Origin: Sphingomicrobium sp.
Lineage (GTDB): Bacteria; Pseudomonadota; Alphaproteobacteria; Sphingomonadales; Sphingomonadaceae
Assembly: GCA_030146725.1 (NCBI GenBank)
Contig: JASLBJ010000298.1
Location: 1 to 11,638 of the forward strand
Length of the DNA stretch: 11,638 nucleotides
Direction: 5' to 3'
Positions within the stretch are counted from its first letter, which is position 1; each line of letters opens with the position of its first letter. Positions 1 through 11,578 of this stretch are shown here, one piece after another. A model generated the notes under the pieces. The model was not told where the DNA came from. It made no database searches and saw nothing but the letters and a program-made list of their open reading frames with translations. Made by a program: the position numbers and the translations under genes.

Positions 1-1425
1 GGCGAGGATGGCATTGCCACCGGGCGAGCCAAGCGCACCGACAAAGCGGCGGTTACCGTCGAGCATGATTAACGGAGTCATGGACGAACGTGGCCGCTTG
101 CCCGGTGCAACCGAATTGGCTGCACCGGGCCGAAACGAGAAGTCGGTCATCTGATTGTTGAGGAAAAAGCCGTCGACCATCCGGCCCGAGCCGAAGAAGG
201 ATTCCACCGTAGTAGTCATCGACACCACATTCCCCTGCGCGTCCACGACTACGAAATGCGAGGTGCCGGCGGGCTCGGCCGTGAGGTCGTCGACGGCAGC
301 ATTGGCTCCTGGCGGAGTTCCGGGTTTCGGGGGCGGTCCAGCGCTTGGGCCGATCAGCCGGGCACGAGCCGTGACATACGCGCGGTCGAGCAAGCCCTCT
401 ACTGGCACGCGAACGAAGGCGGGATCGCCGACATATTGGTCGCGGTCGGCGTACATGATGCGGCTTGCGGCGGCGAACAGATACCAGGCTTCCGGGTCGT
501 TGCTGCCTCCCGCCGCAAGGTCGGTGCGCTCAAGGAGAGCGAGAAGCTGTAGCAGGCCTATCCCGCTCGAGGGCGGGGGCGGTACGCAGATCAGCGTCAG
601 CCTATAGGTCTGGCACAAGGGCTCGCGCCTGATTGGCTGATAGCCGCCAAGATCGGCGAGTGTCATCGTCCCGCCCAGCGGTCCGGCACGCGTGCGGGCA
701 ACGATCCGCCGTGCCGTCTCACCTTTGTAGAGCGCATCAGGCCCTTCAGCCGCCAGTCGGGCGAGGAAGGCTGAATAGGCCGGGTTGCGGAGCGTGTAGC
801 CGGCGGCGATCCGGCCTCCGCCGGGGCTGGCAAAATAAGCCGCGACATCGGGCGCGCTCGCCTGGGGGAAACGTCCGCCGGCGAAGCGGGCGAGGCGCGC
901 GGTTACGGAGAAGCCGTTGGCGCTGGTGCGCCGGGCATCGTCGAACAGGGTCCGCCACGCGAGCTGCCCGTGCTCGCGATGGGCTGCGGCGAGCATTCTG
1001 ACAACTCCAGGTACGCCGGTCGCGATCCCGCCGGTCATGGCGGCGGCTCGGGGCAATGCTTTGCCATCCTGGTCAAGGAACATGCTGGCGGTGACACCGG
1101 CAGGCGCGGTTTCGCGGCCGTCGTAGACGACCACCCGCCGGGTGCGTGCGTCGTAATGAGTCATGAAGGCGCCGCCGCCAAGGCCGGAGCTCTGCGGCTC
1201 GACCAGGCTCAGCATTGCCTGGATCGCAATCGCCGCATCGACTGCGCTTCCCCTGCGGCGCAGGACGGCGAGGCCGGCCTCGGTTGCGAGCGGGTGGGCG
1301 GATGCCACGAAGATCTGCGCCGCCGGCCTGGGAGCGACGGCCGTTGCCGCAGCGGGCGGACGCAAGGGCGTGCATGACGCACTGACGAAGGCTGCGGCAG
1401 CCGCGATCAGGAGCCGGCGGATCAT
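1..1425 (-). CDS. ggt: Gamma-glutamyltransferase, lid-loop-less type (3' end cut by window edge)
   Basis: Ntn-hydrolase that self-cleaves before a catalytic Thr and transfers or hydrolyses gamma-glutamyl groups. 475 residues are visible; roughly the last 100 of the small subunit lie outside the window. The N-terminus is hydrophobic and ends in SASC (Cys18), so it is exported and possibly a lipoprotein, although Ser at -3 is not ideal for a lipobox. Visible landmarks: Arg104 in DGRETAP (equivalent to E. coli Arg114), nucleophile Thr388 in GTSHF, Thr406, Glu408 (Asn411 in E. coli), FLNNQMTD with Asp428 (Asp433 equivalent), Ser447-Ser448, and GSPGG at 466-470. Only 14 residues separate Asp428 from the KRP motif, so the lid loop of E. 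coli GGT is missing. This and Glu408 resemble Bacillus GGT. The ATG overlaps the upstream ggt stop as ATGA, implying coupled translation. Family assignment is firm; polymer specificity is inferred. Confidence 0.95.
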   Translation of the reverse strand, partial: MIRRLLIAAAAAFVSASCTPLRPPAAATAVAPRPAAQIFVASAHPLATEAGLAVLRRRGSAVDAAIAIQAMLSLVEPQSSGLGGGAFMTHYDARTRRVVVYDGRETAPAGVTASMFLDQDGKALPRAAAMTGGIATGVPGVVRMLAAAHREHGQLAWRTLFDDARRTSANGFSVTARLARFAGGRFPQASAPDVAAYFASPGGGRIAAGYTLRNPAYSAFLARLAAEGPDALYKGETARRIVARTRAGPLGGTMTLADLGGYQPIRREPLCQTYRLTLICVPPPPSSGIGLLQLLALLERTDLAAGGSNDPEAWYLFAAASRIMYADRDQYVGDPAFVRVPVEGLLDRAYVTARARLIGPSAGPPPKPGTPPGANAAVDDLTAEPAGTSHFVVVDAQGNVVSMTTTVESFFGSGRMVDGFFLNNQMTDFSFRPGAANSVAPGKRPRSSMTPLIMLDGNRRFVGALGSPGGNAILA

Positions 1426-3146
1426 TGACCGACTGCCCTCGCTCCAGGCCGCCGCGGATCCGCGCCGCCAAGTCGAAGCCCCTTCTCGATCATTATCGAC
1501 TGAGCGCTGCCCATCGTCTCGTCGGACGTGATCCGATGACCTCTGGCCTTGAGCGCGGCTACGGTGTCGGGGTTGAAATTGGGCTCGACCCGAAGGCTTG
1601 GTCCGGTGCCTTGATAAATGCGCGGCTGATGCGTCGCTTCCTCAACGTTGAGGCCGAAATCAACGGTGTTGACGATGAGCTGAAGCACCGTGTCGATGAT
1701 CGTACTACCGCCGGGCGTGCCGGTGATCAGCCATGGCTTGTCGTCCTTGAACACGATAGTCGGCATCATGGTGGAGAGCATGCGCTTGCCGGGCTCAAGC
1801 GCGTTTAGTGGCGGCTCTTCTCCCTTGCGCTCCGCTTGCCAGGCCTGCTCATGGCTGAAATTGTTCATCTGGTTGTTGAGCAAGATGCCAGTGCCCTCGA
1901 TCATCACGCCAGAGCCGAAATCGGCGCCCAAGGTGTAGGTCGTGCTGACGGCATTCCCCGCCGTGTCCGCAACCGAGAAATGGGTCGTTTGCGGGCTTTC
2001 GAACCGCCAGGGATCACCCGGCCCAAGCACTTTGGCGGTTCGGGCCCGGTCGGGCGAGATGAGGGTCGCACGCTCGGCCGCATAGGCTTTCGAGATGAAG
2101 CCGGAGAGCGGCATCTTGACAAAGGCTGGGTCGCCCAGGACCTGGTAACGGTCGGCATAGCCGAGCTTCATCGTCTCGGCCATCAGATGGAGCGAGGCGG
2201 CCGATCCGGCCCCGAGCGGCTTTAGTTCGAAATGCTCGAGGATGTTGAGCATGTTGAGCAGGGTCGCGCCGCCCGAACTGGCCGGCGGAGTCGTGGCGAT
2301 CCGGTAGCCGCGGTAACTGCCCATAAGCGGCTCGCGCTCGACGGGCCGGTAGGCGGCCAGATCGGCCAAGGTAACGAGCCCGCCGTGCGCTCGCATGTCG
2401 GAAGCGATCCGGCGCGCGATACTTCCGCGGTAAAAGGCGTGGGACCCGCCGGCCGCGATTTGCTCGAGGGTCCAGGCAAGCTCCGGCTGCTTCAGTATCT
2501 CGCCCGCCGAATAGAGCGCTCCGCCCGGCTTGTAGAAGGTCCGGCGCGCCGCCTGGCTGGTCGACAGCCGCTCCTTGCCCCAGCTGAAGACGAAAGCCTC
2601 GTCGGCCGAAAGCACGACTCCGTTGCGGGCAAGGGCGATCGCCGGCCGCACCACCTCGGCCCAGGGAAGCCGGCCATATCTGTAATGCGCGAGATAGAGC
2701 CCGGCGACGGTGCCCGGGACCGCCGGCGCAAGATAGCCCTGGCTCGCCTCGTCGAGTTCCTTGCCCTTGGCATCGACGAACTGGGCAAGGGTCGCGGATT
2801 GTGGCGCGATGCTGCGGAAGTCGATGACGTGCACTCTTGCCGTCTTCGCCACATAGATGGTCATGAAGCCGTCGCCGCCGATATTGCCGGCACGGGGCAA
2901 GGTGACGGCAAGCGCGAAGGCGGTGGCCACGGCGGCGTCCACGGCATTGCCGCCGCGGCGCAGGATCGCTGCCCCGGTGCGGCTTGCGAGTTCGTTCTGC
3001 GACACGACCATTCCTCGGGTCGCAACCGTCGGCGAGTGGATGCTCGGATATTCGAGCAACTGCCTGCGCTGCGCCTGAGCGGCCGGCGCAGCGGCGAGCG
3101 AGAAGGCCGCGAAAGCGAGCAGGACACGGGAGACAAGGCTATTCAT
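1422..3146 (-). CDS. ggt: Gamma-glutamyltransferase with altered substrate-binding residues
   Basis: Full-length GGT-family Ntn-hydrolase, 574 residues from the chosen ATG. That start gives a clean signal peptide (MNSLVSR, then a hydrophobic core, AAQA|Q cut near residue 25), so it acts in the periplasm. An ATG at 3161 is also possible; neither has a clear ribosome site, and the start overlaps the symporter stop by 8 bases. Motifs: Arg111 in DFRSIAP, nucleophile Thr387 in QTTHF, NNQMNN near 425-430, GTPGG at 476-480, and a lid-loop segment (432-453) of E. coli length. Compared with E. coli GGT, Asn411 is Gly407, Asp433 is Asn429 and Ser463 is Thr459. Asp433 holds the alpha-amino group of the gamma-glutamyl donor, so the natural substrate may be N-blocked or deaminated at that carbon. 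Catalytic machinery looks intact. Membership is certain; specificity is inferred. Confidence 0.95.
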   Translation of the reverse strand: MNSLVSRVLLAFAAFSLAAAPAAQAQRRQLLEYPSIHSPTVATRGMVVSQNELASRTGAAILRRGGNAVDAAVATAFALAVTLPRAGNIGGDGFMTIYVAKTARVHVIDFRSIAPQSATLAQFVDAKGKELDEASQGYLAPAVPGTVAGLYLAHYRYGRLPWAEVVRPAIALARNGVVLSADEAFVFSWGKERLSTSQAARRTFYKPGGALYSAGEILKQPELAWTLEQIAAGGSHAFYRGSIARRIASDMRAHGGLVTLADLAAYRPVEREPLMGSYRGYRIATTPPASSGGATLLNMLNILEHFELKPLGAGSAASLHLMAETMKLGYADRYQVLGDPAFVKMPLSGFISKAYAAERATLISPDRARTAKVLGPGDPWRFESPQTTHFSVADTAGNAVSTTYTLGADFGSGVMIEGTGILLNNQMNNFSHEQAWQAERKGEEPPLNALEPGKRMLSTMMPTIVFKDDKPWLITGTPGGSTIIDTVLQLIVNTVDFGLNVEEATHQPRIYQGTGPSLRVEPNFNPDTVAALKARGHRITSDETMGSAQSIMIEKGLRLGGADPRRPGARAVGQ

Positions 3147-4434
3147 GGCGCGGCGAGCCATATTCCGCGACGTCGATCTCGCCTTCCCAACGCGCGACGG
3201 CGGTTGCGATTGCAAGATCCGCAGTGACGTTAGGAACGGTCCGGATCATGTCGAGGATGCGGTCGAAGGGCAGGATGAAGCCGACCACCAGCGCCGTCTG
3301 TGCGGGTGTAATGCCGATGGCCGCAAGCACCGCGGCGAGGACGAACAGGGAGCCCGAGGGTACGGGTGCGACGCCCATGGCGACGACGGTCGTCGTTGCC
3401 GCGATCACCACATAGTCGGCGACGCTGAGGTCGAGGCCGAACGCCTGGGCGGAGAACAGCGCAAGCATGGCGACATACATGGCCGCGCCGTCCATTCCGA
3501 TCGTCGCACCAAGCGGGAGCACGGTCGAGGCGATCGGCGGTGAGATTCCGAGGTTCTTCTCCGCGACGCGGATCGCGACGGGCAGCGTTGCCGAACTGGA
3601 CGAGGTCGAGAACCCGACCAAGATCGCATCGGCAACCCCGCGGAAAAAGGGGGCGACCGGAAGCCATGCGCCGATGCGGACGACGCTGCCGTGGACCAGC
3701 AGGGTCTGGACGAGGGATCCCACGAGAACGCAAATTGTCAGCCAGAAAATGCTGACGAAGGTTTCGGGGCCGTTGGCGCCGACTACCACGGCGATGAGCG
3801 CGAACACGCCGAACGGGGCCACTTCCATCACGAAGCCTACGATCCGAAGCATCACCTCCGAGCCCGACGCAAGCAGGCGCCGGACGGGCTCGCCAGTGTC
3901 GCCGGCGGTGATCACGCCCGCCCCGACCATGACCGCGAAGAAGATGGTCGCGAGCGTATCGCCCTCGGCCATCGCCTGAATCGGGTTCATCGGGATGATT
4001 CCGATGAAGATTTCGGCCGGGGTCTTGGGCGAGCTAATGAGATTGGGCGTGGTGCCGCCGAAACTCGCTCCCGAACCGGGCGCCAGCAAAGTCGCGACGG
4101 TGAGGCCCACGGTCACTGCAAGCGCCGTGGTGAAGACGTACATGGCAAGCGTCTTCACCCCGATCGTGCCGAGGCGCCTGGGATCGGCGAGCGACGCGAC
4201 GCCCGACGCGATGGTCAGGAACACGAGCGGCGTGACCAGCATCCGGATCAGCCGGACGAAGATGTCGCCGATCCATCTGATCTGGCCGGCGCCGTCACCC
4301 CAGGCCAGGCCGACGATTACCCCGAGTAGCAGTGCCGCCAGGATACGCTTCCACAGCGAAACGCCGAACCAGTAGCGGGCAAGCGGACCGCGGGACTTGG
4401 GTGCCAACGCGCCGGCGGCTACGGTGTCGGTCAA
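3139..4434 (-). CDS. DAACS-family dicarboxylate/amino acid:cation symporter
   Basis: Inner membrane elevator-type carrier related to GltP, DctA and GltPh; likely imports glutamate, aspartate or a dicarboxylate. From the TTG at 4434 it is 431 residues, normal for the family, with hydrophobic helices along its length. The open frame extends upstream, but that part overlaps the deacylase gene and is not transporter-like. The TTG overlaps the deacylase stop as TTGA, with GGAG nine bases upstream. HP1 carries TSSSSATLP (277-285). TM8 keeps the GltPh cation and substrate residues as Asp391, Asp395, Arg398, Thr399, Asn402 and Asp406; Arg398 favours an acidic substrate. Oddities: the TM7 NMDGT signature is GMDGA (313-317), and neither of the two known positions for a second arginine (HP1, or the residue after the TM8 Asp) is Arg. 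In the operon it probably imports what the deacylase and GGTs release. Confidence 0.9.
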   Translation of the reverse strand: MTDTVAAGALAPKSRGPLARYWFGVSLWKRILAALLLGVIVGLAWGDGAGQIRWIGDIFVRLIRMLVTPLVFLTIASGVASLADPRRLGTIGVKTLAMYVFTTALAVTVGLTVATLLAPGSGASFGGTTPNLISSPKTPAEIFIGIIPMNPIQAMAEGDTLATIFFAVMVGAGVITAGDTGEPVRRLLASGSEVMLRIVGFVMEVAPFGVFALIAVVVGANGPETFVSIFWLTICVLVGSLVQTLLVHGSVVRIGAWLPVAPFFRGVADAILVGFSTSSSSATLPVAIRVAEKNLGISPPIASTVLPLGATIGMDGAAMYVAMLALFSAQAFGLDLSVADYVVIAATTTVVAMGVAPVPSGSLFVLAAVLAAIGITPAQTALVVGFILPFDRILDMIRTVPNVTADLAIATAVARWEGEIDVAEYGSPRHE

Positions 4435-6026
4435 GTCGCGCAACTCCAGGATGGACGTTGCGGCTTGAGCAAGGCGCGGCCGCCAAGTCGACCGGTCGGC
4501 TTGCCGGCGTCGAGAGCAAGAACACCGTTCACCAGCACGGTTCGGACGCCCACCGCCGGGGCGGTCGGATTGGTATAGTCGGCACGCGCTGCAAAGCGCT
4601 CGGGATCGATCACGGCTATGTCTGCATAGTATCCAACCCGCAGAACACCGCGCCCGGCGATGCCGAAGATCTTGGCGGTAAGGCCGCTCGACCGCCGCGC
4701 AAACGCTCCCGGGGACAGGTTCGGAGGCTTCTTCACGAACCGTTCCCAGCTTCGGGCGAAGCTCCCGAACTTGCGCGGATGTCCGTCGGTAGCATCGGAG
4801 CTCCCGACCACCCAGTTCTGGCGAGCCAGGAGCGCGATATCGGTCTCGCTCATGTTGAACGAGGCTACCCGAGCGTCGCCGTCTTCGCGCAGGATCCGGA
4901 TTGCGGCGTCGACCGGCTCGAGTCGCCATCCCGCGGCGACTGCCAGGAGCGACTGGCCCTTGTGGCGTCCACTGGTCAGGAGCAAGGCTCCGGCCCCTCC
5001 GCGGCGCTGAAGCGAGCGGCCCATGTCGGCTTGCAGGCGCGCCCGGAAAGACGAGTCCGCCAGCCGCTCGAGCATGCTGCGGCGGCCCCCGGCCAGTGCC
5101 CATCCGGGAACGAGGGCGGACGACAGGCGCGTCCCGGATGCAGTCCACGGATATTGGTCCGCGGTAACCGCCAGCCCCTCGCGCTGCGCTGCCACGACCT
5201 TGGCGATGATCGCCGGCGCGAGGCCCTGAGCCTCCGTGCCAAGCGCCTTTACATGCGCGATGTGGACTGGAAGCCGGGCGGCGCGGCCGATTGCGATGGC
5301 CTCGTCGACACTCGGCAAGAGCCCGACGTTTCCGGACCCTTCGTCACGAAGGTGAGTCTCATAGACGCCGCCGCGCGACGAGGCCTCGCCGGCAAGCGCA
5401 ACGACCTCCTCGGTCCTGGCGAAGGACTGGGGCGCATAATAGAGGCCACTCGAGAGACCGAGCGCGCCGCTGCACATGCCGGAGGCCACGAGCGTCTTCA
5501 TGGTCGCGAGCTCGGCATCGCTCGGCGGCCGGTCGTCGTCGCCGAGGACCTGGCGGCGAACTGCCCCGAAACCGACAAAGGCCGCGACGTTCACGCCTGC
5601 ACCGCCCTGGGCGATCGGGGCAAGTACTGAGCGGACATCGGCCGGGCCACCACCGTCATTGCCGATGAAGACCGTCGTGACGCCCTGCATGACGTGATTG
5701 GGCACCGCTCGTGTGCCCGGGTCCGGTGCCGCAAGTTCATCGCCCGAATGCGTGTGGGGATCGATGAACCCGGGCACGACCATCAGCCCGCGTGCGTCGA
5801 TCGTATTTCGCGCGGAATAGCCGAGGCTGCGGCTGTTCCCGATGAAGAGGATCCGGTCCCCCTTGACGCCGATGTCGGCCGATCGTCCCGCTTCCGCTTC
5901 ACCGTCGAAGATGGTCCCGCCGCGGATGATGAGATCGGCCGAACGCAGGAGAGGCGGCTGCGGAGTGGTGCAGCCGTTCAGGGCCGCACAGGTGCCAGCC
6001 ATCCACAGGAGCGATCTCTGGTACAC
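4431..6026 (-). CDS. N-acyl-D-amino acid deacylase family amidohydrolase, probable lipoprotein
   Basis: Metal-dependent amidohydrolase resembling D-aminoacylases, which release D-amino acids from N-acyl-D-amino acids. 531 residues from a GTG start, 11 bases after the receptor stop. The GTG start gives a lipoprotein signal: MYQR, a hydrophobic stretch, then LNGC with Cys19. The later ATG (6002) would remove the basic n-region. Family features: DLIIRGGTIFDG start of the beta-sandwich, metal-binding HTH at 91-93 in IDPHTHSGD, GLSSGLYYAP (190-199), YETHLRDEG with His225, IAHVK with His258, GSSDATDG with Asp411, and a C-terminal GYYADIAVIDPERF. The usual GNCG, whose Cys bridges the metal in Alcaligenes D-aminoacylase, is GNDG (Asp124). 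Membrane anchoring in the periplasm fits a job between receptor and symporter. The exact substrate cannot be read; a dipeptidase-like role on D-residues is an alternative. Confidence 0.88.
   Translation of the reverse strand: MYQRSLLWMAGTCAALNGCTTPQPPLLRSADLIIRGGTIFDGEAEAGRSADIGVKGDRILFIGNSRSLGYSARNTIDARGLMVVPGFIDPHTHSGDELAAPDPGTRAVPNHVMQGVTTVFIGNDGGGPADVRSVLAPIAQGGAGVNVAAFVGFGAVRRQVLGDDDRPPSDAELATMKTLVASGMCSGALGLSSGLYYAPQSFARTEEVVALAGEASSRGGVYETHLRDEGSGNVGLLPSVDEAIAIGRAARLPVHIAHVKALGTEAQGLAPAIIAKVVAAQREGLAVTADQYPWTASGTRLSSALVPGWALAGGRRSMLERLADSSFRARLQADMGRSLQRRGGAGALLLTSGRHKGQSLLAVAAGWRLEPVDAAIRILREDGDARVASFNMSETDIALLARQNWVVGSSDATDGHPRKFGSFARSWERFVKKPPNLSPGAFARRSSGLTAKIFGIAGRGVLRVGYYADIAVIDPERFAARADYTNPTAPAVGVRTVLVNGVLALDAGKPTGRLGGRALLKPQRPSWSCAT
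4444..4447 (-). promoter_or_regulatory. Ribosome binding site deciding the TTG start of the symporter
   Basis: GGAG on the minus strand lies nine bases before the TTG at 4434, inside the end of the deacylase gene. With the TTGA stop/start overlap and the normal protein length this supports TTG over upstream starts in the same open frame. No ATG or GTG is available nearby in frame. Confidence 0.55.
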
Positions 6027-6037
6027 CAGGTCGACGA

Positions 6038-9000
6038 TCAGAAGCGCTTGCGGGCCGAGACATAGAAGTAGCGTCCGCGGTTGCTGTGAAGTTCTCCCAG
6101 ATAGCCGAAGGTCGCGTCGGCGAGCGGTGCCAGCCTGTTGCCGATGTTGCGGATGCCGAAGCGCAGCCGGGCATCGTTGAGCGGGTGCTGCTCATCGTCC
6201 ACCGCATATTGGACATAGAGGTTGTGGGTCAGGAAATCGTCGACCTGGAACGGCGTCCCGTCGGCCAGCGTGGCACCGGTGTCCACGACGCTGCTGACGT
6301 AGCTGCCGAAATAGCCCGCACCGAAGCCGTTGCGCCGCCACGTCAAGGTCGCCGTCGCGCGCCACTTGGGGCGGCCGTTCTGGCGGATGAGATCCTCGGC
6401 ACCGACGATGTTGATTGTCGAGTCGATGACCCCGTCAGCCTGGGCCTGGAGCAATTGCGACTGCAGCTCACCGGGCTCCTGATAGAATTTCAGCAGGCGG
6501 GCGCCGTTGAGCTTGACGTTGAAGTCGCCGAGCGGCGTGTCGTCCACGTCATAGTAGAAGGCAAGGTCGATCCCCCGCACCGTTCTCGGCGAGAGGTTGC
6601 GGTAGTTGTCGACGACCTGGATCACCCGCCCGACCGGCGCGATGCCCGTTCCCTCGAACAGTTCGATCTCCTCGTCGGTCGGAGCAGCGCGCTCGACCAG
6701 CGGGTTCGAGCTGCCCTGCAGGCGAAGCAGATAATCGAGCGTCAGGGCATTGGCGTCGCCGAAAATGCCGATCAGATCCTTCTGCTTGATCTGCCAATAG
6801 TCGGCGGTCAGGGTCACTCGTCCGAACCTCCGCGGAATCGGCGGCTGAAGCGTTGCACCGACGGTGAAATTCTCCGACTCCTCGGGGTCGAGATCCTGGC
6901 TTCCCGAGCGGTTGCTGACGATTCCAAAGGTGCGGCCGCAATCGTCGAAATTGGCGATCCGGCCGGCGCGGACGTCGGCCTCGCAGCGGATGTAATCGGT
7001 TCGCGTATTCGAGCGCTGGATGCCGCTTTCGAACAATTGCGGCAGGCCGGGAGCGCGGAAGCCCTGCGACCAGGCGCCGCGGAACTGCAGCGCCTCGAAC
7101 GGATAGTAGGACAGAGCGATCTTCGGCTTGGCGACCGATCCGAAGGTCGTGTAGCGCTCGAAGCGCCCGGCCAGCTGCATTTCGATCGAGTGCACGAGCG
7201 GGATGTTCATCTCGGGCGAGACGATCGGCACGGCCAGTTCGGCGAAGGCGGAGACGACGTCGCGGCTGCCCTTCGAATCCGGGGTCGGGCTTGCACCCAA
7301 TACGTCGCTGCCGTTCGACGATCCGTCCAGCGCAGTAAAGACGATAGTGCCGTCCAGCCGGTCGTCGCGATCGTCCTTGAATGTTTCGTGGCGGAACTCG
7401 GCGCCGGTAGCGATGCCGACACGGCCGGCCGGCAGCCGGAACAGATCGGCCCGCGAGATGCGCAGGTCGGCAAGCGCCAGGCTCGTTGTGTTGATGCGCG
7501 AAACGTCGACGAGCAGCGCGTCGGTGACCGTTGCCGGGTTGGGCGTGGAGTCGGCACGGCTGGGATCGAGCGGATCGCCGCCATTGAACGGATTATAGGC
7601 GCTCTCGTCGGTGCGCGAGAGCGCTTCCTGGAACAGGGTCGCGCTGATCGTGCGCATGGTGTCGTTGCTTCGCGCGCGCGAGTAGAGGCCGGCGGATTCC
7701 CAGTCCCACCCGGCGACCTCGCCGCGAAGGCCTCCGAGAAAACGGGTGGTCACATTGTCGACGTTGAACCGGAGCGGGCCGACATCGACCGGGCGATAGT
7801 CAATCAGTTCCAGGTTGAGGCCGGCGGTGGGAACACCGGTCAGGCCGGGCAGCCGGTTGGCGCTGCCGACGGCACCAAGCGGATTGTAGAAATTGTTTGC
7901 CGGGATGACCAGCCGCTGGTTGGCGAGCGAGGTTTCCTGCTCGCGCACCGAGTTGAAGTCGGCGTGGTAGAAACCGACCTCCCCGAAGAACTCAAGCGTG
8001 TCGCTGAATTCGTGATTGACGAAGCCGAACAGGTTGAGGCGCTCGACCTCGCCGAGGATCGTCCGTTCGGTGTTGGTGTCGTAGCGCAGGTTGCGATCGG
8101 TGCTGACGGTCGACAGGCTGCTGTTGTCGAAGCAAACGCCTTCGCCTGCGGGGGCGATGCAGCCCTCGTTGCCGGTCGGCTGGACGTGGAAAATCCCGCT
8201 CGTGGTAAGCGAGACACCATTGTAGCGCACCAGCGTGCTCGAGCGCGAGAAGTCGCTATTGAGCCGCGCGAACTCGCCGAATATGGAATCGGTGCTGCGA
8301 TTGTCGAAATCGACGTCGCCTTCGAACTCGGTGCCTTCGACCAATGGGCGCAGGTCAGACGAGCGTGAGTTGCGGCGGTCGCGTGCGAACAGGGGATCGC
8401 GCTTGGTGAACGAGCCGAACAGGGAGACGTTGGTGCGGCTGTCGTTGAAGCTGTGGCCGGCCTCGAACGACAGTTCATATTCTTCCTGGTCGGAATCGTC
8501 GGTCACCCCGAACTCGCCCTCGATCGCAAGGCCTTCGGAGCGGGTCTTGAGCACGGTGTTGACGACTCCGGCGACCGCATCGGTGCCGTAGATGGCGGCC
8601 GCGCCGTCGCGCAGCACTTCGATCCGGCGAACGCCCATGACCGGAATGGCATTGGTGTTGACGCTCTGCACCGGAACGAGGTTTTCGGTCTGGGTGCCAG
8701 GGTGGAGCACGAGGCGGCGACCGTTGAGCAGGACCAGGGTGTTGCCGGTGCCGAGCGAGCGCAGGTTGATCGACGCCGTATCACCGCGCGCATCGTTGAT
8801 CCCGCCAGCGTCGCGGCTTTCATTGAACGCAACGTCGCCGGCCTGCGGGATCGAGCGGAAGAGCTCGTCGCCGCTGACTGCTCCGGTCGCGTCGATGTCG
8901 TCGGTTCCAAGCACCGTGACGGGCAGTATGTCGGTGACGTCCGAGCCGCGGATCTGCGTTCCGACGACGACGATCTCCTCTTCCACGTCAGCGGGCACCG

Positions 9001-9145
9001 GGGAGATGGGGACGGTCGAGGCCGGCTGGGCGGTTGAATCCGGAACAGCCGGCTGCACGGCTTCCTGAGCAAGCGCGGCAGACGCCGCAAGCAGCGAAAC
9101 GCCGGCAAGCAAGCCTCGGGTCATGACGGTACTGGTCATCTGCAT
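6038..9145 (-). CDS. TonB-dependent outer membrane receptor
   Basis: Energy-coupled outer membrane channel, 1035 residues. The ATG at 9145 is chosen because AAAAGGGG lies just upstream and it starts a signal peptide (basic Arg10, hydrophobic 11-25, ALA|QE cut near residue 26); the open frame continues upstream without signal-like sequence. A Pro/Ala-rich linker leads to a TonB-box-like EIVVVG (57-62). The plug follows (about 70-200) with VLLNGRRLV and IYGTDAVAGVVN (185-196). The rest is beta-barrel, with alternating aromatic strands and long loops. One loop holds Cys329 and Cys338 and a later one another Cys pair, possibly disulfides. The protein ends SARKRF with terminal Phe, as outer membrane barrels do. 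It heads the catabolic operon, so it likely imports the oligomeric or acylated substrate. Receptors of this size in sphingomonads take up sugars, peptides or aromatics, so the ligand cannot be told from sequence alone. Confidence 0.95.
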   Translation of the reverse strand: MQMTSTVMTRGLLAGVSLLAASAALAQEAVQPAVPDSTAQPASTVPISPVPADVEEEIVVVGTQIRGSDVTDILPVTVLGTDDIDATGAVSGDELFRSIPQAGDVAFNESRDAGGINDARGDTASINLRSLGTGNTLVLLNGRRLVLHPGTQTENLVPVQSVNTNAIPVMGVRRIEVLRDGAAAIYGTDAVAGVVNTVLKTRSEGLAIEGEFGVTDDSDQEEYELSFEAGHSFNDSRTNVSLFGSFTKRDPLFARDRRNSRSSDLRPLVEGTEFEGDVDFDNRSTDSIFGEFARLNSDFSRSSTLVRYNGVSLTTSGIFHVQPTGNEGCIAPAGEGVCFDNSSLSTVSTDRNLRYDTNTERTILGEVERLNLFGFVNHEFSDTLEFFGEVGFYHADFNSVREQETSLANQRLVIPANNFYNPLGAVGSANRLPGLTGVPTAGLNLELIDYRPVDVGPLRFNVDNVTTRFLGGLRGEVAGWDWESAGLYSRARSNDTMRTISATLFQEALSRTDESAYNPFNGGDPLDPSRADSTPNPATVTDALLVDVSRINTTSLALADLRISRADLFRLPAGRVGIATGAEFRHETFKDDRDDRLDGTIVFTALDGSSNGSDVLGASPTPDSKGSRDVVSAFAELAVPIVSPEMNIPLVHSIEMQLAGRFERYTTFGSVAKPKIALSYYPFEALQFRGAWSQGFRAPGLPQLFESGIQRSNTRTDYIRCEADVRAGRIANFDDCGRTFGIVSNRSGSQDLDPEESENFTVGATLQPPIPRRFGRVTLTADYWQIKQKDLIGIFGDANALTLDYLLRLQGSSNPLVERAAPTDEEIELFEGTGIAPVGRVIQVVDNYRNLSPRTVRGIDLAFYYDVDDTPLGDFNVKLNGARLLKFYQEPGELQSQLLQAQADGVIDSTINIVGAEDLIRQNGRPKWRATATLTWRRNGFGAGYFGSYVSSVVDTGATLADGTPFQVDDFLTHNLYVQYAVDDEQHPLNDARLRFGIRNIGNRLAPLADATFGYLGELHSNRGRYFYVSARKRF

Positions 9146-9148
9146 AGT

Positions 9149-9156
9149 CCCCTTTT
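9149..9156 (-). promoter_or_regulatory. Strong ribosome binding site of the receptor gene
   Basis: AAAAGGGG on the minus strand ends three bases before the ATG at 9145. It decides this start against upstream in-frame starts and is the clearest Shine-Dalgarno sequence in the window. Confidence 0.7.
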
Positions 9157-9181
9157 GCCGCCCTGCACTCCCGCAGGTTCG

Positions 9182-9215
9182 GTCGTTCGTTCGATCATAG
9201 GTCGGTAGTCGTTCG
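9182..9215 (-). promoter_or_regulatory. Putative receptor operon promoter with flanking direct repeats
   Basis: On the minus strand TATGAT (9199-9194) matches a -10 hexamer in five of six positions and would start transcription about 40 bases before the receptor ATG. An 8-base direct repeat CGAACGAC lies on either side of it (9215-9208 and 9189-9182), and the downstream copy is preceded by a further CGAA. No good -35 is seen, which would suit an activator-dependent promoter. The repeats could bind a regulator, but with this base composition chance cannot be excluded. Confidence 0.35.
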
Positions 9216-9281
9216 GCCAGGCCACCCGGCGATTGCCCCGGGCCATGGTTGCACGGGTGCCGACGGGGTGACAATCCCCGC

Positions 9282-10505
9282 TCATCGGGCGCGCTCCAGC
9301 AGCAGTCCGGCAGCGCGCTCGCCCGAGCCCATGGCGAATGTCCAGCCAAGTGCGCCATGGCCGACGTTGAGCACGAAGCCGGGCCGGACCTTGCGGATGA
9401 TCGGCAGTGACGACGGGGTCATCGGGCGGAGGCCGGACCAGCAGGTCTCGATCCGGCTGTAATCCGCAGCGCCGGGGAGCGAGGTTCGGGCAGCCGCAAG
9501 CAGGCCCGACAAGCGTCTGGAGTCAATCGTCAGGTCGCGATGACCAAGGTCGGCCAGGCCGGCGATCCGGATCTTCCCGGAAAGCCGGCAGAACACCAGT
9601 TTGCGGGCAGCGTCGGTGATGCTCACCTTTGGCGCGGCGGACCCAAGCGGCGCCGTCACCGAATAGCCTTTCATCGGCCAGATGGGCACGCTCACGCCGC
9701 TCCCCCTGAGCAAGGCGGGCGTATCGACACCGGTACACAAGGCGATCTGTCGGGCTTCGATCCGGCGGCCGTCGATCGTTGCAGCGGGATGTCCGCCCGC
9801 CAGGTCGAGCTTCGATACCGAAGCGCCGAAGCGCGTCTTCACCCCGTAATCGGCGGTGAGCCGCTCCAGCAGCGCGGTGCAGAAAAGATGGGGGTCGCCG
9901 ACCTCGTCCTCCGGGGAATGAACCGCGCCGCTCAGACGATGCGCGATCGAGTCCAGCGCCGGCTCCACCTTGATCGCCTCGCCCGGACCGAGCAGCTCCT
10001 GCCGCGCGCCGGCCCTCCGCTTGGCCTCGACCAACCGGGCTGCGGCGCGCAGTGACGTGCCGCCTTCGAGCAGATGCAGCTTGCCCGGCACCGAATGGCC
10101 GAAGGCGATGCTGTGCCGTTCGAGCAGGGCATGCATCGCAGCGCGCGATTCGAGCGCCAGCTGCAGGCCGGCAAGCGTGTTATGGAGAAAGCGTGACGAG
10201 CTTGCATTGCGCAGCACGTCGAGGCTCCAGCGCGCAAAACCAAGATCGAAGCTGGCCTTCAGGCGGAAGGCCGGATCGGCCAGCATCAGCAGTGCAGGAA
10301 GCCGCCGAAGCAAGGCCGGCGAGGCGAGCGCGTCGGTGTAGGCATAGCTGAGCTGCGCGCCATTGGCGAAGGACGTGCCGAGGCCAGGCCCCGCCGAGCG
10401 GTCGACGAGAGTCACCGACAGCCCGCGGCGCGCAAGCGCGTAGGCCGTCGCCATGCCGACTACGCCTGCACCAAGGACAAGCGCGTCGCATCGCTCATCC
10501 GCCAT
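9282..10505 (-). CDS. dadA: FAD-dependent D-amino acid dehydrogenase (DadA-like)
   Basis: Flavoprotein that oxidises D-amino acids to 2-oxo acids and ammonia, passing electrons to the respiratory chain. 407 residues from the ATG at 10505, usual for the family; a TTG at 10517 would add four residues. The N-terminal Rossmann motif GAGVVG (12-17) ends in VDR with Asp35 to bind the FAD ribose. TSFANGAQLSYAY (44-56) is the DadA signature after the dinucleotide fold. Other hallmarks are SPEDEVGDPHLF, SGLRPMTPSSLPII and the C-terminal NVGHGALGWTFAMGSG, which closes the FAD site. There is no signal peptide, so it faces the cytoplasm. No alanine racemase gene is adjacent, unlike the classic dadAX pair, which points to a peptide-catabolic rather than an alanine-specific role. 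A D-hydroxyproline dehydrogenase is an alternative in this family. It lies between the LysR gene and the receptor operon. Confidence 0.88.
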   Translation of the reverse strand: MADERCDALVLGAGVVGMATAYALARRGLSVTLVDRSAGPGLGTSFANGAQLSYAYTDALASPALLRRLPALLMLADPAFRLKASFDLGFARWSLDVLRNASSSRFLHNTLAGLQLALESRAAMHALLERHSIAFGHSVPGKLHLLEGGTSLRAAARLVEAKRRAGARQELLGPGEAIKVEPALDSIAHRLSGAVHSPEDEVGDPHLFCTALLERLTADYGVKTRFGASVSKLDLAGGHPAATIDGRRIEARQIALCTGVDTPALLRGSGVSVPIWPMKGYSVTAPLGSAAPKVSITDAARKLVFCRLSGKIRIAGLADLGHRDLTIDSRRLSGLLAAARTSLPGAADYSRIETCWSGLRPMTPSSLPIIRKVRPGFVLNVGHGALGWTFAMGSGERAAGLLLERAR

Positions 10506-10607
10506 GCACTCTGCCAACTGGTGCGTGCGAAATCCGCCGCGACGACCTCATGCCGGTTTTCCCCTTGGAGGATACGGCTCTGGTCGGCCGCTCGCTACTG
10601 GAACGGC

Positions 10608-10653: not shown

Positions 10654-10670
10654 TATGGTCGAAGGGTATA
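10654..10670 (-). promoter_or_regulatory. Putative LysR-type regulator binding box
   Basis: TAT, 11 bases, ATA: a perfect short inverted repeat matching the T-N11-A pattern bound by LysR-family regulators. It begins nine bases after the end of the LysR gene and is centred about 61 bases upstream of the predicted dadA start site, the usual location of a LysR recognition site. This suggests the neighbouring LysR protein controls dadA. Short motifs like this occur by chance, so confidence is modest. Confidence 0.35.
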
Positions 10671-10678
10671 GCCTGGGT

Positions 10679-11578
10679 CTATGAAAGGAGCGCCTGGCTC
10701 GCGAGCAATTCCTCGGCAAAGATTGCCCTGAAGCGCTCGGCAGCGGCGGACAGGGGACGCTGCTCGAGGGTCACGCACTGGACCGAAAAACGCAGGGCCG
10801 GGTCGAGCAGGCGATGTTCCACTTGGCCGTTCGACCAGGCGCGCGCGGTGAACTCGTCGACTACGGTTAGCCCGGCGCCAAGCTGGACCAGCGCGGCTGC
10901 GACGTAGAACGTCTGGACGCTGATCGGCTCGCGGCAGTTCAGTTCCATGCGCTCGATCGCTGCCGCGAGCAGGTCCCCGAGGGGCCCGCTCGCGGTAAGG
11001 CCGATCAGGTCTTGGCCGTCGAGCACGCCCAGCGGCAGTCGTTCATCGCCGCTGCCGAACGTACCCTTGCGGAACAGCAGCGCAAGCTCGCCCGACGCGA
11101 TCTCACGCATCACCAGGCGCGGGTGCGGCGATGGATCATAGGCAAAGGCCAGGTCGCAGTTGCGCTCGTGCAGGACGCGCACGAGGCTGTCGTGATGGAG
11201 CGTCTGGACGTCGAAGCTGATGTTCGGCTCGACGCGCCGAAAACGCGCGATCGCCTGTGGAGCGACGCTGAGCGCGAGCGACGGGACCACGGCGAGCCGG
11301 ACATGGCCGCCGCCCACGTTGCGAAGGTTCCTGGCGGTCTTCTGCAGGGAGGCAATCCGGTCGAAGATATCGCCGGCCTCGCGAAACAAGGCGTGCGCCT
11401 CGTCGGTCGCCACCAGGCGGCCGCGGACGAGGCGGAACAGAGGGAAGCCGAGCTGATCCTCGGCATGGCGCAGCATCTTGCTGACCGAAGGCTGGGAAAT
11501 GTGCAGCGCCCGCGCCGCCGCGCTGATCGAGCCGTTCGTGTAGACGGCATGGAAGATCTCGATGTGGCGGAAGCGCAT
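10679..11578 (-). CDS. LysR-family transcriptional regulator
   Basis: DNA-binding regulator of 299 residues, standard length. The N-terminal winged helix-turn-helix covers about residues 1-60; the recognition region SISAAARALHISQPSVSKML (17-36) is a textbook LysR pattern, followed by the linker helix. From about residue 90 a periplasmic-binding-like effector domain begins (VRLAVVPSLALSVAPQAI). No membrane segment or signal is present. The ATG at 11578 is the natural start for the family, which begins right at the helix-turn-helix; only a weak ribosome site precedes it. It is encoded on the same strand as dadA, 173 bases upstream of it, and not divergently as many LysR genes are. It probably senses an amino acid or peptide breakdown product and activates dadA and perhaps the receptor operon; the effector cannot be predicted. 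Confidence 0.93.
   Translation of the reverse strand: MRFRHIEIFHAVYTNGSISAAARALHISQPSVSKMLRHAEDQLGFPLFRLVRGRLVATDEAHALFREAGDIFDRIASLQKTARNLRNVGGGHVRLAVVPSLALSVAPQAIARFRRVEPNISFDVQTLHHDSLVRVLHERNCDLAFAYDPSPHPRLVMREIASGELALLFRKGTFGSGDERLPLGVLDGQDLIGLTASGPLGDLLAAAIERMELNCREPISVQTFYVAAALVQLGAGLTVVDEFTARAWSNGQVEHRLLDPALRFSVQCVTLEQRPLSAAAERFRAIFAEELLASQALLS

What the first reader, a model, noticed from the sequence alone, without database searches (positions are those of the whole stretch)
1..10517. Candidate utilisation locus for gamma-glutamyl / N-acyl D-amino acid compounds
A TonB receptor, an anchored D-aminoacylase-like deacylase, an acidic amino acid symporter and two distinct gamma-glutamyltransferases form one tight same-strand cluster, with a D-amino acid dehydrogenase and LysR regulator just upstream. 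Each step of a pathway is covered: outer membrane uptake, removal of gamma-glutamyl and acyl groups in the periplasm, import, and D-amino acid oxidation. Candidate substrates are gamma-D-glutamyl oligomers such as poly-gamma-glutamate fragments, acylated D-amino acids of lipopeptides, or peptidoglycan peptides. I know of no described system with this exact gene set, but that is recall, not a search.
Basis: partly seen in the sequence, partly recalled or inferred. Interest (0 to 1): 0.7.

Follow-up and report, generated by a model that had tools for sequence, protein, structure and literature searches.

The report
Bacterial D-glutamate scavenging gene cluster
A run of seven bacterial genes looks like a kit for pulling in D-glutamate-containing fragments, probably pieces of bacterial cell wall, cutting D-glutamate out of them and burning it, all under one switch; it includes an unusual relative of a well-known enzyme family.

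Summary
The genes are real: LysR, DadA, TonB receptor, lipoprotein D-aminoacylase (DAA), acidic amino-acid symporter (SDF) and two GGT homologues, all minus strand; the last four overlap. The order recurs in three Sphingomonas loci, and in a Caulobacter MAG where DgcN-DgcA, a known D-glutamate pair, replace DadA. Of 80 DAA loci, 57 carry DgcN/A or DadA, none both. The LysR genes share a palindrome, YATARC-N5-GYTATR, at their stop codons (window 10667-10683; 53 of 65 distinct relatives). It also precedes dgcN, many related receptors and some GGT genes, so one regulon joins import, hydrolysis and D-Glu catabolism. "Two gamma-glutamyltransferases" needs correction: GGT1 is canonical, but GGT2 has Asn411->Gly and Asp433->Asn, in 12 of 12 locus orthologues and 120 of 120 best homologues, so it may not need a free alpha-amino group. 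Best reading: scavenging of N-acylated gamma-D-glutamyl peptides, most likely peptidoglycan stem peptides, to D-glutamate. Poly-gamma-glutamate is a live rival. Substrates are inferred, not shown. New variant of a known kind.

The parts
10679..11578 (-). LysR-type regulator, related to the LysR next to dgcN-dgcA in other bacteria
   Evidence: PF03466/PF00126; 32-64% identical to LysR genes in related loci
10667..10683 (.). Predicted LysR operator, palindrome YATARC-N5-GYTATR with one mismatch, overlapping the lysR stop codon upstream of dadA
   Evidence: 0.03 expected by chance in the window at up to one mismatch
9282..10505 (-). D-amino acid dehydrogenase-like FAD enzyme (DadA); inferred D-glutamate oxidation
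   Evidence: PF01266; NCBIfam D-amino acid dehydrogenase PRK00711 333 bits, under its cut-off of 383; TTG start at 10517 also possible
6038..9145 (-). TonB-dependent outer-membrane receptor
   Evidence: PF07715 and PF00593; signal peptide read by eye; 34 of 74 distinct relatives (37% identity or more) carry the operator upstream
4431..6026 (-). N-acyl-D-amino acid deacylase-like lipoprotein (DAA), GTG start, lipobox LNGC read by eye
3139..4434 (-). Acidic amino acid or dicarboxylate symporter (SDF), TTG start overlapping the DAA stop
   Evidence: PF00375, E 9e-108; TM8 motif DMIRTVPNVTAD keeps the acidic-substrate Arg (GltPh residue roles recalled)
1422..3161 (-). GGT2: GGT-family Ntn-hydrolase with G411, N433 and R444 (E. 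coli numbering), R114/T391/S462 kept, Sec-like signal peptide read by eye
1..1425 (-). GGT1: canonical GGT without lid loop (B. licheniformis type), lipoprotein-like N-terminus; 3' end outside the window

Best explanation
A LysR-controlled operon for scavenging D-glutamate from N-acylated gamma-D-glutamyl peptides, most probably peptidoglycan stem peptides (L-Ala-gamma-D-Glu-diamino acid). Inferred path: the TonB receptor imports the fragments. In the periplasm GGT2, which keeps the alpha-carboxylate site but has lost part of the alpha-amino site, hydrolyses the gamma bond of an N-acylated D-Glu. The lipoprotein DAA then removes the N-acyl group (for example L-Ala), and GGT1 handles gamma-D-Glu with a free amino group. 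SDF imports D-Glu, and DadA oxidises it to 2-oxoglutarate. LysR binds YATARC-N5-GYTATR between lysR and dadA, probably with D-Glu as inducer. Shown here: gene set, conservation, residue pattern, shared operator. Inferred: every enzyme activity, the inducer and the substrate.
For: Seven-gene order in L001, L002, L049; L036 has LysR-DgcN-DgcA-TBDR-DAA-SDF-GGT2-GGT1, DgcN over its NCBIfam cut-off. DgcN/A or DadA in 57 of 80 DAA loci, both in 0. In 40 loci found through the receptor, a D-Glu catabolic gene is present in 12 of 14 with DAA and 2 of 26 without. Operator core at 53 of 65 distinct LysR stops. Upstream sites at up to one mismatch, distinct genes: DgcN 38 of 43, receptor 34 of 74 (18 not beside a LysR stop), GGT1 4 of 14, GGT2 3 of 18, against 0.019 expected per gene. 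G411 and N433 in 12 of 12 locus GGT2s and 120 of 120 best homologues; D433N in E. coli GGT brings glutaryl-7-ACA acylase activity (PMC8062742, passages). Receptor relatives co-occur with a GGT or M14 hydrolase: 20 of 25 long loci against 2 of 43 without the receptor. In genome G202 a second locus with the operator holds DgcN-DgcA-DAA-TBDR, and in G162 DAA sits with LysR-DgcN-DgcA, S13 and an AmpG-like gene. S13 near 28 of 80 and AmpG-like genes near 20 of 80 DAA loci. dadA expression rises on D-Glu in Raoultella and P. aeruginosa (PMC6131576, abstract). Stem peptides carry D-Glu N-acylated by L-Ala (established knowledge).
Against: No activity or transcription data. The review that reports the D433N acylase activity also says this mutant kept 82% of its hydrolytic activity, and cites the view that class IV acylases are mainly GGTs (PMC8062742), so N433 alone need not exclude ordinary gamma-glutamyl substrates. 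S13 and AmpG-like neighbours are found only in DAA loci without this receptor clade (0 of 28 and 0 of 20 with it) and rarely carry the operator (2 of 28, 0 of 20). PGA_cap genes carry the operator in 4 of 9 cases, which points towards poly-gamma-glutamate. Of 6 genomes with a close GGT2, DAA is in the same locus in 2, elsewhere in 2 and not found at 45% identity or more in 2; L142 has a lone GGT2. L193 pairs a canonical (N411/D433) GGT with TBDR-DgcA-DgcN. Fold and sequence do not separate D-aminoacylase from N-acyl-D-Glu deacylase. All counts are over related genomes.
Confidence: 0.5

Rival explanations
1. The same D-Glu regulon, but the substrate is poly-gamma-glutamate: the receptor imports oligomers, GGT1 (no lid loop) trims from the free amino end, GGT2 cuts internal, N-acylated gamma-Glu bonds, and D- and L-Glu are taken up.
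For: GGT1 has the short loop of B. licheniformis GGT, and loop-less GGTs are suggested to accept the polymer (PMC8062742, passages). PGA_cap genes recur in the regulon (4 of 9 with the operator, 2 of them not beside a LysR stop). Poly-gamma-glutamate enriched Sphingomonas and Caulobacter OTUs in soil conditioning (PMC11937826, passages). DAA is missing from some GGT2-receptor loci.
Against: Gives the N-acyl-D-amino acid deacylase no clear job. In the same paper two Sphingomonas and one Luteimonas OTU fell after transplant. Cell-wall genes (S13, AmpG-like, an M15 fusion) stand near DAA relatives.
Confidence: 0.28
2. A locus for other N-acyl-D-glutamate or N-acyl-D-amino acid compounds (lipo-amino acids, lipopeptides); the GGTs serve unrelated acyl or glutaryl amides.
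For: The DAA family acts on N-acyl-D-amino acids; GGT2 shares N433 with class IV cephalosporin acylases (PMC8062742); penicillin-amidase genes carry the operator in 8 of 15 cases in related loci.
Against: Does not explain a canonical GGT1 kept beside GGT2, or the D-Glu-specific DgcN-DgcA replacement.
Confidence: 0.12
3. Ordinary glutathione or gamma-glutamyl peptide scavenging; DadA and DAA are chance neighbours.
For: GGT family membership; the D433N mutant of E. coli GGT keeps most of its hydrolytic activity (PMC8062742).
Against: Conserved set, shared operator and D-Glu catabolic genes; GGT2 has lost N411 as well as D433.
Confidence: 0.06

Closest known systems
DgcN-DgcA D-glutamate pathway with its LysR regulator (marine Proteobacteria)
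   Same: The LysR is 41% identical to the LysR beside DgcN-DgcA in Pseudoalteromonas (L078), which has the same palindrome core at its 3' end; product D-Glu
   Different: The window has DadA in place of DgcN-DgcA and adds receptor, deacylase and two GGT-family hydrolases. The original DgcN and regulator papers are recalled, not read (one look-up failed)
E. coli gamma-glutamyltranspeptidase and class IV cephalosporin acylases
   Same: GGT2's best PDB match is E. coli GGT (482 bits); N433 as in class IV acylases (PMC8062742, passages)
   Different: GGT2 also has N411->G, no Tyr at 444 and, in most alphaproteobacterial members, S463->T
D-aminoacylase (1V4Y, 1M7J) and N-acyl-D-glutamate deacylase (3GIP)
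   Different: Asp124 stands where D-aminoacylase has its metal-binding Cys (role recalled); exported lipoprotein, about 32-33% identity
TonB-dependent utilisation loci (PUL-like; recalled)
   Same: Receptor, periplasmic hydrolases, inner-membrane transporter, catabolic enzyme, regulator
   Different: Inferred cargo is a D-Glu peptide rather than glycan or siderophore; none of this kind stood among the titles listed

Membership tests
Gamma-glutamyltransferase (PF01019) | Thr391 nucleophile, GG483-484, R114 and S462 alpha-carboxylate contacts | tested here: met
   Both GGT1 and GGT2; roles of S462 and GG partly recalled
Gamma-glutamyltransferase (PF01019) | Alpha-amino site of the gamma-glutamyl donor (N411, Q430, D433) | tested here: not met
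   GGT2: G411, N433 (Q430 kept); GGT1: E411, D433 as in B. licheniformis, so met there; the roles of N411 and Q430 are recalled
Class IV cephalosporin acylase | Asn at the D433 position | tested here: met
   GGT2; significance from PMC8062742 passages
Class IV cephalosporin acylase | Activity on glutaryl-7-ACA | not testable with these tools
   needs enzyme assay
N-acyl-D-amino acid deacylase | Family fold and metal-site His/Asp residues | tested here: met
   H91, H93, H225, H258, D411 align with the D-aminoacylase ligands (their identities recalled)
N-acyl-D-amino acid deacylase | Metal-binding Cys96 | tested here: not met
   Asp124 instead, invariant in the 17 aligned sequences; whether it is required in this branch is unknown, so the name is used as 'like'
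N-acyl-D-glutamate deacylase | Specificity for D-Glu | not testable with these tools
   sequence and fold tie with D-aminoacylase
DgcN-DgcA D-glutamate catabolic locus | DgcN and DgcA present | tested here: not met
   None in the window; DadA in that slot. The host genome is not held
LysR regulon of dgcN loci | Shared palindrome at the lysR 3' end / dgcN promoter | tested here: met
   window 10667-10683, one mismatch
LysR regulon of dgcN loci | LysR binds the palindrome and responds to D-Glu | not testable with these tools
   needs binding and expression assays
TonB-dependent receptor | Plug plus beta-barrel, signal peptide | tested here: met
   signal peptide read by eye

The most novel reading that the evidence does not exclude
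A TonB-energised uptake system for peptidoglycan stem peptides, whose key step is done by a previously unrecognised GGT subfamily re-tooled (G411/N433) to hydrolyse N-acylated gamma-D-glutamyl bonds, wired into a D-glutamate LysR regulon with a defined operator, in Alpha- and Gammaproteobacteria.
Probability: 0.36. Interest if true: 0.75.

Novelty: new variant of a known kind. Interest (0 to 1): 0.6.

Why it matters
D-glutamate from cell walls is a large pool of organic matter. If right, this gives a genetic marker (receptor, operator, GGT subfamily) for bacteria that live on it, a testable substrate for an orphan TonB-receptor clade, and a natural GGT branch with altered donor specificity. 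It would also correct routine 'gamma-glutamyltransferase' annotation for that branch.

Tried and rejected
Disfavoured: plain glutathione scavenging (GGT2 residues, gene set). Set aside: antisense plus-strand ORFs such as 6086-8368 (taken as high-GC shadows of minus-strand genes). Not decisive: promoter and terminator scan; solved-structure and fold searches for DAA, which do not separate D-Glu from general D-amino acid specificity; the M14 peptidase of relatives matched no NCBIfam family at 1e-10 and, in the PDB, only other M14 carboxypeptidases, so it is not called MpaA-like. A genome-wide scan with the strict operator in 8 genomes gave 0-2 places per genome, no more in total than the reversed control pattern (1-6 per genome), so the strict motif is informative inside loci, not genome-wide. 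The motif was derived from LysR-stop regions of the same loci in which it was then counted; the sites before TBDR, DgcN and GGT1 away from LysR stops are the more independent part. The control of all other half-site rearrangements had one close competitor (CATARY, 27 sites against 58), which shares the core. Similarity thresholds were chosen after seeing tables, and gene starts for the upstream counts were estimated from alignments. Two of the receptor-found loci (L202, L211) repeat L030 and L066; searches counted them twice, and the counts given are those without them unless or 83 is named. A claim of absence from print rests on the listings in an open-access library. A GGT2 structure model was not made. 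On re-checking I lowered the main reading from 0.55 to 0.5 and the novel case from 0.4 to 0.36, because D433N keeps most gamma-glutamyl hydrolysis and the S13/AmpG neighbours occur only in receptor-less loci; the poly-gamma-glutamate rival rose from 0.25 to 0.28 and glutathione from 0.05 to 0.06.
Full report
What is there. The 11.6-kb window (63-69% G+C per kb) holds seven genes on the minus strand: LysR, DadA-like dehydrogenase, TonB receptor, D-aminoacylase-like lipoprotein (DAA), SDF symporter, GGT2, and GGT1 cut off by the window end. From the receptor on, genes lie 11 bp apart or overlap, which suggests one transcript. The host genome is not held. Named sources among the best homologues are mainly Sphingomonas, Sphingosinicella, Allosphingosinicella and Caulobacteraceae, so a sphingomonad host is likely. 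Signal peptides and lipoboxes, read by eye, put DAA, GGT1, GGT2 and the receptor outside the cytoplasm.

Is the set conserved? Three Sphingomonas loci (L001, L002, L049) have all seven genes in the same order, and L004 has DadA-DAA-SDF-GGT1. In L036, a Caulobacter MAG, the order is LysR-DgcN-DgcA-TBDR-DAA-SDF-GGT2-GGT1. Independent of that scan, 15 longest-contig lengths are shared between the lists of 120 best DAA and 120 best GGT2 homologues, one of them the window itself; equal length is only a proxy for the same contig.

What is the product? NCBIfam names the L009 and L036 proteins DgcN and the L047 protein N-acetyl-D-Glu racemase DgcA, all over cut-off. DgcN-DgcA turns D-Glu into L-Glu (PMC10845958, passages). 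Of 80 DAA loci 41 carry DgcN, 39 DgcA and 16 a DadA; 57 have at least one of the three and 0 have DadA with DgcN or DgcA. Of the 68 loci of 15 kb or more, 55 have one; 5 of the 13 without are Gemmatimonadota. The D-Glu catabolic module thus comes in two interchangeable forms. Growth on D-Glu went with raised dadA expression in Raoultella and, in stationary phase, P. aeruginosa (PMC6131576, abstract).

Reciprocal tests. With GGT2 as query in 296 genomes of the order, 72 matched at E <= 1e-100 and 6 at 55% identity or more. Of these 6, 5 have the receptor and DadA nearby and 1 (L142) has neither. DAA is in the same locus in 2 (G002, G193), elsewhere in the genome at 47-50% in 2 (G202, G162), and not found at 45% or more in 2 (G132, G213). 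The two separated DAA genes are telling: in G202 the DAA lies in operator-DgcN-DgcA-operator-DAA-TBDR (second operator with one mismatch), and in G162 in LysR-operator-DgcN-DgcA-DAA with S13 and an AmpG-like gene (operator with one mismatch). So G202 has both DadA and DgcN-DgcA, in different loci under the same operator. Of 15 other GGT regions that I chose and fetched (L146-L160), none has DAA, DadA or DgcN. A counterexample exists: in L193 a canonical GGT lies beside TBDR-DgcA-DgcN. With the receptor as query (91 of 296 genomes matched; I chose and fetched 40 regions), 14 of 40 have DAA, 22 an M14 peptidase and 12 DadA. D-Glu catabolic genes are present in 12 of 14 with DAA and 2 of 26 without (Fisher 1.3e-6; related genomes, so the p-value is optimistic). 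In the DAA set, receptor relatives co-occur with a GGT or M14 hydrolase in 20 of 25 long loci, against 2 of 43 without the receptor. M14 (13 loci) and GGT2 (12 loci) overlap in one (L034), so they look like alternatives.

One switch. At the end of the window's lysR lies TATAGCCTGGGTCTATG (10667-10683), a palindrome of T-N11-A type overlapping the stop codon; 0.03 are expected in the window at this stringency. ATA-N9-TAT lies within -20..+150 of the stop of 53 of 65 distinct related LysR genes (55 of 67 with two repeats). The same stretch after 11 other gene families gave 0-7 hits each (for example DadA 0 of 32, TBDR 2 of 115, DAA 6 of 99, GGT2 7 of 39). Columns not used for picking also follow the palindrome (C and G in 49 of 55 each, outer Y and R in 54 of 55). 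The site is found in loci with DgcN/A (30), DadA (22) and neither (3). The strict consensus occurs 58 times in the 80 loci; the other 359 half-site rearrangements reach at most 27, median 0. Allowing one mismatch, it precedes 38 of 43 DgcN genes, 34 of 74 receptor-clade genes (18 of them not beside a LysR stop), 8 of 30 DadA, 4 of 14 GGT1, 3 of 18 GGT2, 4 of 9 PGA_cap and 8 of 15 penicillin-amidase genes, but only 3 of 95 DAA, 1 of 52 SDF and 0 of 34 M14 genes, as expected if these are inside operons; 0.019 are expected per gene. Strict sites stand before both dgcN and the receptor in six loci: L031, L033, L034, L050, L065, L075. In the receptor-centred set the site precedes the receptor in 10 of 14 loci with DAA and 3 of 26 without. 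This ties receptor, hydrolases and D-Glu catabolism into one regulon. Genome-wide the strict motif alone is no more frequent than its control.

The odd GGT. In E. coli numbering GGT2 has R114, T391, Q430, S462, T463 and G483-484 but G411, N433 and R444; GGT1 has E411, D433 and no lid loop, like B. licheniformis GGT. All 12 GGT2 orthologues in DAA loci have G411 and N433 and all 11 GGT1 relatives E411 and D433; one distant GGT (L010) fits neither. The 120 best homologues of GGT2 all have G411 and N433. Fourteen other GGTs seen in the 13 genomes of GGT-bearing DAA loci lack G411/N433; one of them (L100) has the GGT1-like E411/D433 (30 of 39 matches had a readable locus). D433N in E. coli GGT abolishes transpeptidation and brings glutaryl-7-ACA acylase activity, but keeps 82% of the hydrolytic activity, and class IV acylases have been viewed as mainly GGTs (PMC8062742, passages; the glutaryl activity also in PMC11421214, passages). 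D433's counterpart contacts the alpha-amino group of the donor (PMC8062742); N411 and Q430 are recalled to do so as well. So GGT2 is expected to accept gamma-glutamyl groups whose alpha-amino group is blocked or absent while still holding the alpha-carboxylate, perhaps besides ordinary donors. D-Glu in peptidoglycan is such a residue (L-Ala on its amine, diamino acid on its gamma-carboxyl). After GGT2, L-Ala-D-Glu is an N-acyl-D-amino acid, the substrate type of the DAA family. This gives each gene a step; it is inference.

Peptidoglycan or poly-gamma-glutamate? For peptidoglycan: the need for DAA, and neighbours in relatives, namely peptidase S13 (28 of 80), AmpG-like transporters (20 of 80; the one tested scores 335 bits against a cut-off of 350), and a beta-lactamase/M15 fusion (L026, L033, L050). 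C. crescentus, which lacks LdcA and Mpl homologues, is thought to break stem peptides down to amino acids (PMC13046382, passages). Against: S13 and AmpG-like genes occur only in DAA loci without this receptor clade and rarely carry the operator (2 of 28 and 0 of 20). For poly-gamma-glutamate: loop-less GGT1, PGA_cap genes in the regulon, DAA missing from some GGT2 loci, and soil enrichment of Sphingomonas and Caulobacter (PMC11937826, passages; the same paper reports Sphingomonas and Luteimonas OTUs that fell). I put peptidoglycan ahead but not far.

Novelty. No paper in the library held TonB-dependent, D-aminoacylase and gamma-glutamyltransferase together, and no title listed by three wider searches describes such a locus; the library is open-access only. 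The parts are known kinds; the combination, the GGT branch and the operator are, as far as searched, undescribed. All counts come from related genomes, and no activity is shown.

Noticed in passing
L146, L151, L156: Another GGT-family group next to a related TonB receptor has Tyr at 114, Ser/Thr at 411 and Asn at 433 (YTSSN/YTTSN), lacking even the alpha-carboxylate Arg; no D-Glu genes in view.
   Followed up: no
L013, L019, L032, L043, L045, L046, L052, L056: Penicillin-amidase family genes near DAA-DgcN loci carry the same LysR operator upstream (8 of 15), so a further Ntn-hydrolase may belong to the D-Glu regulon.
   Followed up: partly
L191, L196, L199, L212: PGA_cap (capsule-type) genes carry the operator (4 of 9); their role in D-glutamate use is unclear.
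   Followed up: partly
L197, L200, L201, L204-L209, L214-L216, L223, L224, L226-L229: A second group of loci pairs this receptor clade with a distant SDF symporter and/or M14 peptidase, with no DAA, no D-Glu genes and no operator before the receptor: probably another substrate.
   Followed up: no
L242 6169-6185 and 8247-8263: One genome (G202) carries two D-Glu loci under the same operator: LysR-TBDR-SDF-GGT2 with DadA-GGT1 (L145), and DgcN-DgcA-DAA-TBDR.
   Followed up: partly
window 9146-9281: The 136-bp gap between dadA and the receptor gene shows no operator at up to two mismatches; the receptor is probably read from the lysR-dadA promoter.
   Followed up: partly
window 4431-6026: The DAA branch has an invariant Asp124 where D-aminoacylase has a metal-binding Cys.
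   Followed up: no
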